Part shown: positions 41,725 through 60,091 of the stretch, piece by piece
Numbering within the stretch: position 1 is the first letter of the stretch
How the letters are laid out: each line of letters opens with the position of its first letter
From: Chloroflexota bacterium
GTDB taxonomy: Bacteria; Chloroflexota; UBA6077; JACCZL01
DNA: 64,000 nt
NCBI GenBank assembly: GCA_020850535.1
Contig: JADZEM010000029.1
Span: forward strand, 1-64,000
Reading direction: 5' to 3'
Program-made: the position numbers and the translations under genes
Notes under the pieces: generated by a model
What the model was told of the DNA's origin: nothing
The model's database searches: none
Seen by the model: only the letters and a program-made list of their open reading frames with translations

Positions 41725-41771
41725 GGGGCTTGTCCCCCGCCCGTTCGCTCTGGGCGCGGGTGGGAGACAGG
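41725..41771. repeat. Hairpin whose right arm is split by the MITE
   Basis: GGGGCTTGTCCCCCGCCCG (41725-41743) pairs imperfectly with CGGGTGGGAGACAGG (41757-41771) plus CCCC, which now lies beyond the MITE at 42000-42003. Probably the terminator of the enolase-family gene, interrupted by insertion. Confidence 0.55.
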
Positions 41772-41989
41772 CAGGGCGATTGCATGTTCATTGGTGTATC
41801 CGAAGCATCATGGAACGGGCGGTCGGGGACTGAAGTCCCCGCCTACAGTCATTCAGTCGCTGCGCGACGGCCGTCGGGCACGGGCAGGCACTGGTGCGAC
41901 TGGAGCGTCGCGCAGCGACTGCAGGCGTGTAGGCGGGGCTTTCAAGCCCCGACGCGGCGGCACGACGACATCAACATGCAATCGCCCTG
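41772..41989. mobile_element. MITE-like palindromic element, copy 1
   Basis: 218 bp with perfect 16-bp terminal inverted repeats (CAGGGCGATTGCATGT at the left, its complement at the right) and no coding capacity. Directly flanked by a perfect 10-bp duplication GGGAGACAGG (41762-41771 and 41990-41999). Inside, further inverted segments (GTCGGGGACTGAAGTCCCCG with GGGGCTTTCAAGCCCC; GTCGCTGCGCGAC with GTCGCGCAGCGAC) let the whole element fold into one long hairpin or nested cruciforms. Two more copies lie at 57994 and 58221. Confidence 0.85.
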
Positions 41990-41999
41990 GGGAGACAGG

Positions 42000-42130
42000 C
42001 CCCAATGCCGTTCAGGTAGGACGCCATCCGGACCGCGAGCGTCAGCGAGTCGGACCTGCACTATGCGGGTCCACTCGCTGACGCTCGTCGTACGGCGGCG
42101 CGACGCGTGACAGACTGAACGGCATTGGGG
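42000..42130. repeat. Second inverted-repeat element (single copy here)
   Basis: 131 bp bounded by a perfect 16-bp inverted repeat, CCCCAATGCCGTTCAG and its complement. An inner pair (GCGAGCGTCAGCGAGT / ACTCGCTGACGCTCG) continues the symmetry. It abuts copy 1 of the MITE and has no coding capacity. It may be a different non-autonomous element or a structured repeat. Confidence 0.6.
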
Positions 42131-57977: not shown

Positions 57978-57993
57978 CAGGACACCTGCAGCT

Positions 57994-58210
57994 CAGGGCG
58001 ATTGCATGTTCATTGGTGTTCCCGGAGCATCATGGAACGGGCGGTCGGGGACTGAAGTCCCCGCCTACACTCCTGCAGTCGCTGCGCGACGGACGCAGGG
58101 AACGGCTGGGGCTGGCGAGCCTGGAGCGTCGCGCAGCGACTGCAGGAGTGTAGGCGGGGCTTTCAAGCCCCGACGCGGCGACACGACGCGCTCAACATAC
58201 GATTGCACTG
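57994..58210. mobile_element. MITE-like palindromic element, copy 2
   Basis: 217 bp. The left end CAGGGCGATTGCATGT is intact and the inner inverted segments are conserved. The right end has decayed (AACATACGATTGCACTG instead of AACATGCAATCGCCCTG). Preceded by ACCTGCAGCT (57984-57993), which recurs only after copy 3. Separated from copy 3 by ten bases. Confidence 0.8.
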
Positions 58211-58220
58211 GTAGCAGCAT

Positions 58221-58438
58221 CAGGGCGATTGCATGTCTGTTGGTGCTCCCGAGGCACCGTCACACGCGAGGTCGGGGACTGAAGTCCCCGCCTACAGTCA
58301 CGCCGTCGCTGCGCGACGGACACCGGGCACGGACAGGGACTGGTGCGACTGGAGCGTCGCGCAGCGACTGCAGGATGGTAGGCGGGGACTTCAGTCCCCG
58401 ACGCCGCGGCACGACGACATCAACATGCAATCGCCCTG
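58221..58438. mobile_element. MITE-like palindromic element, copy 3
   Basis: 218 bp, same length as copy 1, with both 16-bp termini intact. Followed by ACCTGCAGCT (58439-58448), matching the ten bases before copy 2. The pair 57994-58438 therefore sits as one 445-bp unit inside a single 10-bp target duplication. Confidence 0.85.
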
Positions 58439-58540
58439 ACCTGCAGCTGCTGTGCTTCGGAGAACGTGCGCTCGATGCAGTAGAATGCCGAGAACTGACT
58501 GAATCATTCGTCCGGGCAGAGTGCCGGCGCCGAGGATGAG

Positions 58541-60091
58541 ATGCGCGCGCTGATCAGCGTGTTCGACAAGACTGGTGTGGTGGACTTCGCTCGTGGGCTG
58601 GCCGATCGCGGCGTCGAGCTGATCGCCACTGGCAACACCGAAGCCATGCTCCGTGAGAGTGGCGTCGCCGTGCGCGGTATTCAGGAGCTGACCGGCTTCC
58701 CCGAGATCCTGGGCGGTCGCGTCAAGACCTTGCACCCGCTGATCTACGCCGGCATTCTCGGGTTGCGCCATGACCCCGGCCATCTCGAAGAGATGGACCG
58801 CGTCGGCGCATCGCCCATCGATTTCGTGGTCTGTAACCTCTACCCGTTCCGCGAGACCGCCAAGGGCTCCGGCCAGGATCTCGCGAACGTGCTGGAGAAC
58901 ATCGACATCGGCGGCGTGACGCTCCTGCGGGCGGCGGCCAAGAACTTCGCCCAGGTCGTGCCGATCTGCGACCCGATGGACTACGGGACCGTCCTCGACG
59001 AGCTGGCCAGCGACGCCGGCAACGTGGGCCAGGGGATTCGCAGGCGGCTGGCGGCCAAGGCGTTCCAGCACTGCGCCGTCTACGACACCCACATCTCGGG
59101 CTACCTGCGGAGCGCCGACGAGCTGTTCCCGGATCACCTGACGCTCGCCATGAAGAAGATCGGCGAGCTGCGGTACGGCGAGAACCCGCATCAGCTGGCC
59201 GCGTTCTATGCCGACAGCACCATCCGCAGCCTGCCGCGCGGCGTCGTCAGCGGCCGACAGCTACACGGCAAACAGCTCGCCTTCAATAACACCTACGACC
59301 TCGACGCTGCCTGGCGCATCGTGGCCGACTTCTCCGCGCCAACGGTCGCCATCGTCAAGCACGGCAACCCGGTCGGGCTGGCCTGCGGCGACGATCTCGC
59401 CGAGACCTATCGGCGGGCCGTGGCCGGCGATCCGCAAACGGCGTTCGGCGGCGCGATCAGCTTCAACCGGACCGTCAACGAGGCGGCCGCCCGCGAGATC
59501 GCCGAGGTCTTCTTCGAGGACTTGATCGCCCCGGACTACACCCCCGAGGCGCTGGCCGTCCTCCAGAAGAAGCGCGATCTCCGCATCATGGCGACCGGCT
59601 ACCAGCCGGAGCGGCCCGGCGAGATCGAGGCCGGCGACCTCGACTTCAAGCGCGTGGTGGGCGGCTGGCTGGTGCAGACCCGCGATGCCCTCCCCGAGAA
59701 CATGCTGACCCGCGACGTGGTCACCACGCGCCCGCCCACCCTCTCCGAGCTGACCAGCCTCCTCTTCGCGTGGCGGGCCGTCAAGCACGTCCACTCGCAC
59801 GGCATCGTGCTGGCGCGCGGCCTCCAGCTGGTCGGCCTGGGCGCCGGGCAGCCGAGCCGGGTAGACGCCGTCGATCTGGCCTGCCGGAAGGCCGGCGACC
59901 GTGCAGCCGGCGCGGTGATGGCGTCCGATGCCTTCTTCCCGTTCCCGGACGGTATCGAGCGGGCGGCGGCGGCCGGCGTCACGGCGGTCATCCACCCGGG
60001 CGGCTCGATCCGCGATCAGCAGGCCATCGAGGTGGCGAACCGTCACCACATGGCGATGATCTTCACCCACCAGCGACACTTCAAGCACTAG
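58541..60091 (+). CDS. purH: Bifunctional AICAR transformylase / IMP cyclohydrolase PurH
   Basis: 516 residues. The N-terminal IMP cyclohydrolase (MGS-like) domain has ALISVFDKTGVVDFARGL and GGRVKTLHPLIYAGIL. The C-terminal transformylase domain has GENPHQLAAFY, GKQLAFNNTYDLDAAWRI, the Lys-His catalytic pair in IVKHGNPVGLA, and SDAFFPFPDGIERA near the end. It catalyses the last two steps of de novo IMP synthesis. Start ATG 58541 after GAGGATGAG. Confidence 0.96.
   Translation: MRALISVFDKTGVVDFARGLADRGVELIATGNTEAMLRESGVAVRGIQELTGFPEILGGRVKTLHPLIYAGILGLRHDPGHLEEMDRVGASPIDFVVCNLYPFRETAKGSGQDLANVLENIDIGGVTLLRAAAKNFAQVVPICDPMDYGTVLDELASDAGNVGQGIRRRLAAKAFQHCAVYDTHISGYLRSADELFPDHLTLAMKKIGELRYGENPHQLAAFYADSTIRSLPRGVVSGRQLHGKQLAFNNTYDLDAAWRIVADFSAPTVAIVKHGNPVGLACGDDLAETYRRAVAGDPQTAFGGAISFNRTVNEAAAREIAEVFFEDLIAPDYTPEALAVLQKKRDLRIMATGYQPERPGEIEAGDLDFKRVVGGWLVQTRDALPENMLTRDVVTTRPPTLSELTSLLFAWRAVKHVHSHGIVLARGLQLVGLGAGQPSRVDAVDLACRKAGDRAAGAVMASDAFFPFPDGIERAAAAGVTAVIHPGGSIRDQQAIEVANRHHMAMIFTHQRHFKH

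What the first reader, a model, noticed from the sequence alone, without database searches (positions are those of the whole stretch)
41772..41989. A MITE-like 218-bp palindromic element with a 10-bp target duplication
Perfect 16-bp terminal repeats (CAGGGCGATTGCATGT) and a perfect flanking duplication GGGAGACAGG show that a non-coding element inserted here. The interior is made of nested inverted segments, so the entire unit can fold into a single long hairpin. Three copies in 64 kb suggest a high-copy family in this genome. I do not recognise it as a named family. A 10-bp duplication is in the range known for IS4-superfamily transposases, so an IS4-like parent is a hypothesis.
Basis: partly seen in the sequence, partly recalled or inferred. 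Interest (0 to 1): 0.75.

Follow-up and report, generated by a model that had tools for sequence, protein, structure and literature searches.

The report
ISAs1-derived MITE family, often dimeric
A 218-base stretch of non-coding DNA is one of several hundred copies of a jumping element that borrows the enzyme of a known bacterial transposon type (ISAs1), and in this genome it often sits and spreads as two copies joined head to tail by the same ten letters.

Summary
Window 41772-41989 has perfect 16-bp ends, a perfect 10-bp target duplication and a hairpin-forming non-coding interior. It is a MITE, and the ends identify its parent. In 28 other genomes of the class, the exact 16-mer occurs once, as the left end of an ISAs1-family IS in the same bacterial family. 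ISAs1 elements found here start with CAGGG, and several have 10-bp duplications. The parent is therefore ISAs1 rather than IS4. The host's own ISAs1 copies are broken.

The genome holds about 450 copies (298 exact ends; reversed control 0). In the sample, 42 of 54 single copies have a 10-bp duplication within 2 mismatches, several related empty sites exist, and 56 of 57 insertions lie outside coding sequence.

Its 10-bp spacer, GTAGCAGCAT, recurs exactly at 57 sites. At 39 of about 50 sampled junctions the inner end is the same mutated sequence. Dimers thus multiply with their junction intact. Bodies are shuffled by recombination, so transposition of the dimer as a unit and recombinational conversion of single copies are not separated. 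This is a new family with an unusual dimeric form, not a new kind of element.

The parts
41762..41771 (.). left copy of 10-bp target-site duplication GGGAGACAGG
   Evidence: identical to 41990-41999
41772..41989 (+). single full-length MITE (218 bp)
   Evidence: 16-bp perfect terminal inverted repeats; best self-hit and ~450 relatives in own genome
41772..41787 (+). left terminal repeat CAGGGCGATTGCATGT
   Evidence: identical to left end of ISAs1 IS in L040
41974..41989 (-). right terminal repeat CAGGGCGATTGCATGT
   Evidence: exact inverted copy
41822..41847 (-). left GTAG-tagged REP-like hairpin (GTCGGGGACTGAAGTCCCCGCCTACA)
   Evidence: hairpin with compensatory changes across copies; practically absent outside the family
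41929..41953 (+). right GTAG-tagged REP-like hairpin GTAGGCGGGGCTTTCAAGCCCCGAC
   Evidence: inverted partner of 41822-41847
41855..41921 (.). inner inverted pair AGTCGCTGCGCGACG / CGTCGCGCAGCGACTG with variable loop
41990..41999 (.). right copy of target-site duplication GGGAGACAGG
57984..57993 (.). left copy of outer target-site duplication ACCTGCAGCT of the dimer
   Evidence: identical to 58439-58448
57994..58210 (+). left unit of MITE dimer; its inner (right) end is the variant CAGTGCAATCGTATGT
58211..58220 (+). 10-bp dimer spacer GTAGCAGCAT, read as a fossil target duplication
   Evidence: 57 exact CTG-GTAGCAGCAT-CAGGG junctions genome-wide, control 0
58221..58438 (+). right unit of MITE dimer, both ends intact
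58439..58448 (.). right copy of outer target-site duplication ACCTGCAGCT

Best explanation
The element is a non-autonomous DNA transposon (MITE) whose 16-bp ends are those of an ISAs1-family insertion sequence. An ISAs1 transposase acting in trans binds the two ends and inserts the element with a 10-bp staggered cut, which leaves the 10-bp duplication. Shown: the ends, the duplications, related empty sites, the high copy number, and the match to an ISAs1 IS. Inferred: mobilisation by that transposase. A second level exists. Head-to-tail dimers with exactly one target-duplication length (10 bp) between the units arose several times. The most successful lineage (spacer GTAGCAGCAT) has spread to more than 50 loci, keeping its spacer and a mutated inner end while the outer ends stay good. 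Most likely the dimers transpose as one unit through their outer ends. Homologous recombination among the hundreds of copies then reshuffles the unit bodies, and probably also converts some single copies into dimers.
For: ISAs1 origin: the exact 16-mer occurs outside this genome only once in 28 other genomes of the class, as the left end of the L040 ISAs1 element (right end 15/16), and once more in a phylum sample of 400 genomes. The L040 transposase scores 397 bits for NCBIfam ISAs1. ISAs1 elements found here have CAGGG ends and exact duplications of 10 bp (five), 9 bp (two) and 8 bp (one). The host's own broken ISAs1 copy ends in CAGGGCGATTGCATCA (14/16). Transposition: 31 of 54 single copies have a perfect 10-bp duplication and 42 of 54 have at most 2 mismatches, against 4 of 2862 mismatched pairs. 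Related empty sites carry the target once. One insertion splits a phosphonoacetate hydrolase gene. Dimers: 57 exact junctions genome-wide, control 0. Outer duplications are exact in 10 and within 1 mismatch in 14 of 26 testable dimers, each different from the spacer. Inner right end: mean 3.45 mismatches against 0.7-1.0 at the other ends; outer against inner Wilcoxon p = 2.5e-5. The same variant occurs at 39 of about 50 junctions. A GTTCGTGACT-spacer dimer has a clean related empty site (L134 against L091).
Against: No intact ISAs1 transposase with these ends was found in this genome, so the current driver is unknown or unassembled. Only about 17 bp are shared with the IS; there is no internal homology. 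For dimers, L and R bodies are not linked across loci (Mantel r = 0.07, p = 0.28), and only about the first 75 bp of R are more uniform than single copies. This points to recombination and leaves conversion of single copies possible. One single copy with the dimer-type 3' end (L081:11700-11916) has a 2-mismatch duplication, so that end may not be dead.
Confidence: 0.85

Rival explanations
1. Dimers spread not by transposition but by homologous recombination or gene conversion. A dimer (or an excised circle of one unit plus spacer) recombines with a resident single copy, so that the resident keeps its old flanking duplication and gains the second unit with the fixed spacer.
For: L and R bodies are unlinked across dimers. 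R uniformity decays away from the junction. Units of one dimer are more alike than units of different dimers (0.891 against 0.867, p = 0.0006). Two loci carry reciprocally swapped flanks, the mark of recombination between copies. Dimers do not have better preserved outer duplications than single copies.
Against: L bodies are more uniform than single copies along their whole length, which simple conversion with random crossovers does not predict. Outer ends are intact while inner ends are degenerate, as expected if the outer ends are the working ones.
Confidence: 0.4
2. The parent is a true IS4-family element.
For: 10-bp duplication; the ISAs1 transposase carries the DDE_Tnp_1 domain, which IS4-family transposases also have (general knowledge).
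Against: The only complete IS found with these exact ends is ISAs1, and the resident broken IS with nearly these ends is also ISAs1. No IS4-family element with these ends was found, though none was searched for separately.
Confidence: 0.04
3. The unit is a REPIN: a pair of GTAG-tagged REPs spread by a RAYT (Y1) transposase, with the terminal repeats only incidental.
For: The interior holds two inverted GTAG-tagged hairpins with compensatory changes, the REP hallmark described in PMC3733652.
Against: There is no Y1_Tnp gene in the genome. The hairpins are practically never found outside the element (391 in all, 1 outside). Insertion gives a 10-bp duplication at the 16-bp ends, not REP-type insertion.
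Confidence: 0.04
4. The arrays and shared junctions are assembly artefacts of a draft genome with several hundred near-identical repeats.
For: The genome is a 227-contig draft and many contigs end in the element.
Against: 57 junctions with the same 10-bp spacer and inner-end haplotype, many inside long contigs, with matching outer duplications unrelated to the spacer. Other spacers recur too. Individual swapped flanks could still be artefacts.
Confidence: 0.05

Closest known systems
ISAs1-family insertion sequences (NF033564, PF13808 + PF01609), e.g. the IS in L040 (JACCZL010000153.1, Chloroflexi bacterium MGR_bin229)
   Same: Identical 16-bp left end, 15/16 right end; CAGGG start; duplications of 8-10 bp, mostly 10.
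   Different: The MITE has no transposase gene and shares only about 17 bp of each end; its interior is unrelated.
Bacterial MITEs such as TIMEs (Tn3-derived, PMC4133298) and MITEPye1 (IS1182-derived, PMC11578231)
   Same: Short, non-coding, terminal inverted repeats matching an IS or transposon, target duplications, hairpin fold, preference for intergenic DNA.
   Different: Different parent family; far higher copy number than the 1-3 per chromosome reported for MITEPye1; large share of tandem dimers.
TIME-COMP composite elements (two TIMEs moving the DNA between them, PMC4133298)
   Same: Two non-autonomous elements act as the ends of one larger mobile unit with its own outer duplication.
   Different: Here the DNA between the two is only 10 bp, the length of a target duplication, and one dimer lineage has reached more than 50 loci.
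Tandem IS dimers of IS30, IS911 and IS256 (PMC9333248 and its reference list)
   Same: Head-to-tail dimer with a spacer; for IS30 the spacer is, from memory, about the length of the target duplication.
   Different: Those dimers are reactive transposition intermediates with abutted good ends; here the inner right end is mutated and the dimer is a stable, multiplied form. Circle formation by ISAs1 transposase was not tested.
Coral CMITEs (PMC2872659)
   Same: Full-length MITEs in tandem arrays.
   Different: Eukaryotic, piggyBac-like parent; array formation there is ascribed to replication slippage, with no report in the passages read that dimers re-inserted as units.
GTAG-tagged REP repeats inside longer palindromes (Anabaena variabilis GTAG-15, Thermomicrobium roseum GTAG-23; PMC3733652)
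   Same: A pair of GTAG-tagged hairpins nested in a larger palindrome.
   Different: No RAYT gene here, and the outer palindrome is a transposon end with a target duplication.

Membership tests
MITE (non-autonomous IS derivative) | terminal inverted repeats at both ends | tested here: met
   16-bp perfect inverted repeats; profile of 264 copies, 154 full length
MITE (non-autonomous IS derivative) | target-site duplication of constant length | tested here: met
   10 bp; 31/54 exact, 42/54 within 2 mismatches against 4/2862 control pairs
MITE (non-autonomous IS derivative) | no transposase gene, multiple copies | tested here: met
   218 bp, no room for a transposase; 298 exact ends in the genome
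MITE (non-autonomous IS derivative) | actual mobility (empty sites) | tested here: met
   related empty sites in other repeat copies; interrupted phosphonoacetate hydrolase gene. No orthologous empty site in a sister strain could be tested
ISAs1-derived | ends identical or near-identical to an ISAs1 IS | tested here: met
   16/16 and 15/16 with L040 IS; 14/16 with resident broken IS
ISAs1-derived | same duplication length | tested here: met
   10 bp in five, 9 bp in two, 8 bp in one ISAs1 element found here; L040 itself shows no duplication
ISAs1-derived | mobilisation by an ISAs1 transposase | not testable with these tools
   needs an experiment; only broken copies seen in this genome
IS4 family | IS4-family transposase with the same ends | tested here: inconclusive
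   the IS found with these ends is ISAs1; IS4 transposases were not searched for separately
REPIN / RAYT | RAYT (Y1_Tnp) gene in the genome | tested here: not met
   no PF01797 match; control genomes ring in 5 of 14
REPIN / RAYT | free REPs outside the element | tested here: not met
   391 hairpin matches, 1 outside the family
Composite transposon type of unit (two elements moving together) | outer duplication around the pair, different from the inner junction | tested here: met
   10 exact and 14 within 1 mismatch of 26 testable dimers; window dimer ACCTGCAGCT

The most novel reading that the evidence does not exclude
The head-to-tail dimer is a distinct and successful form of the element. 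A unit whose right end has gone bad survives by borrowing the right end of a neighbour exactly one target-duplication length away. ISAs1 transposition, possibly through circles and end-targeted insertion as in IS30/IS911, creates such dimers repeatedly with a spacer that records the original target site.
Probability: 0.3. Interest if true: 0.55.

Novelty: new variant of a known kind. Interest (0 to 1): 0.42.

Why it matters
MITEs derived from ISAs1 were not described in the papers that I read, and I found no report of bacterial MITE dimers with a fixed spacer spread over dozens of loci. The spacer acts as a barcode: it marks each dimer lineage and records the site where it first formed, so formation, re-insertion and recombination of tandem transposons can be followed in one genome. 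If the dimers move as units, they show how an element with one dead end can stay mobile. If they spread by recombination, they show how hundreds of short repeats rewire a bacterial chromosome. Either way several hundred such copies help to explain why this genome assembles into 227 pieces.

Tried and rejected
(1) REPIN/RAYT origin: no Y1 transposase, no free REPs. (2) Search for the 218-mer in plasmids and of an 18-bp end in viral contigs: nothing. (3) Search for the element in 60 relatives: only a 35-bp core-hairpin match in G035. (4) The single 16-mer in G245 (L221) has no ISAs1 gene within 1.5 kb. (5) Rfam: only weak sub-threshold miRNA hits in the neighbouring palindrome, taken as chance. 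(6) I first read the ungapped profile of the right units as site-specific joining at the right unit's end (IS30-like end targeting). A gapped alignment showed that the first ~75 bp of R are shared too, so that argument was dropped. (7) Unit-level identity alone does not separate transposition from conversion of dimers.

Full report
Observation. Window 41772-41989 is bounded by perfect 16-bp inverted repeats CAGGGCGATTGCATGT and flanked by GGGAGACAGG on both sides. Its single strand folds at -76.9 kcal/mol against a shuffle mean of -46.1 (z -8.8). The interior holds two inverted 48-bp arms, 83% complementary. Each arm has a GTAG-tagged hairpin and a CGTCGCGCAGCGAC segment.

Copy number. The exact 16-mer occurs 168 + 130 times in the 7.65-Mb draft genome and never in reversed control form. 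I fetched 1.75 Mb of the genome, chosen mainly around known copies and therefore enriched for them. A 217-position profile found 264 non-overlapping copies there, 154 of them full length. The sample holds 173 of the 298 exact ends, so by simple scaling the genome holds about 450 copies.

Insertion. Of 54 full single copies that do not abut a dimer spacer, 31 have a perfect 10-bp duplication and 42 have at most 2 mismatches. Swapping right flanks between copies gives 4 of 2862 pairs at that level. The duplications differ from site to site, with a weak symmetric preference for G at position 1 and C at position 10. Several copies sit inside other repeat families, and uninterrupted members of those families carry the target once (L134/L091, L136/L076, L068/window:42000-42130). 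With a codon-usage model trained on 758 long reading frames, 56 of 57 duplication-bearing insertions lie outside coding sequence, whereas 711 of 1000 random positions look coding. The one exception (L118:17108-17325) splits a gene whose flanks, joined at one target copy, read as a phosphonoacetate hydrolase-like protein with a Phosphodiest domain running across the site.

Parent. I tested ISAs1 because, from memory, that family has CAGGG ends and 8-10-bp duplications. PF13808, the ISAs1-associated domain, has two loci in this genome, both broken. The C136 copy is frameshifted and interrupted by about 5.5 kb and has ends CAGGGGGATTGCATAA and CAGGGCGATTGCATCA; the C187 copy is a remnant with end CAGGGCGATTGTATAG. 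In the same bacterial family, genome G001 (JACCZL010000153.1) has a 1256-bp ISAs1 element with left end CAGGGCGATTGCATGT and right end CAGGGCGATTGCATGA; its reading frame appears shifted near the 3' end. That is the only occurrence of the exact 16-mer in the 28 other genomes of the class. The phylum sample of 400 genomes adds one more isolated hit, with no ISAs1 gene beside it. The transposase scores 397 bits for NCBIfam ISAs1, cut-off 70. Other ISAs1 elements fetched here have CAGGG ends with exact duplications of 10 bp (L041, L061, L223, L225, L238), 9 bp (L042, L060) and 8 bp (L048). The match covers both ends but only about 17 bp each, as is usual for MITEs.

Dimers. In the sample, 66 of 186 loci hold two or more profile matches, nearly all head to tail and mostly exactly 10 bp apart (some of these are single copies with an internal gap). 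The spacer is not random: GTAGCAGCAT joins units at 57 exact sites genome-wide, and GTTCGTGACT, CCCCCTCGCT and GCGCTGCCCT recur at fewer sites. Of 26 full dimers with unique flanks, 10 have perfect outer duplications and 14 have at most one mismatch, and none equals the spacer. The window dimer 57994-58438 is one of these. The right end of the left unit is a shared variant, CAGTGCAATCGTATGT, at 39 of about 50 GTAGCAGCAT junctions. Mean mismatches to the consensus end are 0.68 (outer left), 3.45 (inner right), 0.87 (inner left) and 1.03 (outer right); outer against inner p = 2.5e-5. So the dimer lineages carry a fixed junction into many sites, and the ends that must work are the outer ones.

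How dimers spread. Pure descent of one dimer by transposition would link left and right bodies across loci. They are not linked (Mantel r 0.07, p 0.28). Left units are more uniform than single copies along their whole length; right units only in roughly the first 75 bp. Units within one dimer are more alike than expected (p 0.0006). Two loci show exactly swapped flanks (L127 and L133), as recombination between copies would give, though a chimeric assembly could mimic it. I conclude that recombination among copies is common. It may reshuffle dimers that move as units, or it may itself convert single copies into dimers. I favour unit transposition plus reshuffling at about 60:40; this is inference. 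How the first dimers form (slippage between the two target copies, or insertion beside a resident end as described for IS30 in PMC9333248) is not shown.

Interior. The left hairpin shows paired changes (GGGGACT/AGTCCCC against GGGGGTT/AACCCCC) in 20 of 42 copies; 99.1% of hairpin cells pair, above all 500 shuffles, although relatedness inflates that comparison. The hairpins look like GTAG-tagged REPs (PMC3733652) but occur almost only inside this family, and no RAYT gene is present. They are probably an old passenger, or are kept for folding; their role is unknown.

Distribution. The element was found only in this genome among 60 relatives, and was absent from plasmids; an 18-bp end was absent from viral contigs.

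Limits. The genome is a 227-contig draft. The sample is biased toward element-bearing regions. No sister strain was available for orthologous empty sites. ISfinder could not be searched.

Noticed in passing
42000-42130: A second palindromic element (131 bp, perfect 16-bp ends CCCCAATGCCGTTCAG) abuts the MITE's right duplication. Relatives occur at L085:9720-9836, L137:11069-11168, L126:4019-4115, and one in L068 is interrupted by the MITE.
   Followed up: partly
L091:16469-16658, L109, L076, L134, L164: Another abundant ~190-bp palindromic repeat family (GTCATCCCGACCGCGGCGAGGAACGAGCG...GCTCGGGATGACGG) that serves as landing site of the MITE.
   Followed up: no
L127:9525-9741 and L133:9380-9596 (C112 and C141): Two MITE copies with reciprocally exchanged 10-bp flanks, suggesting a chromosomal rearrangement by recombination between copies, or an assembly chimera.
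   Followed up: partly
L118:17108-17325: A MITE copy inserted inside a phosphonoacetate hydrolase-like (PhnA) gene, splitting it.
   Followed up: yes
L146 (C136:21107-27850): Resident ISAs1 element broken by a frameshift and by an insertion of about 5.5 kb.
   Followed up: partly
L137:4856-4963, L139:4415-4522, L111:9351-9458, L161:4142-4249: Mini forms of about 108 bp that keep both ends but lack the middle of the element.
   Followed up: no
58541-58640: The window dimer lies about 100 bp upstream of a gene that looks like purH ([33 protein letters not shown]).
   Followed up: no
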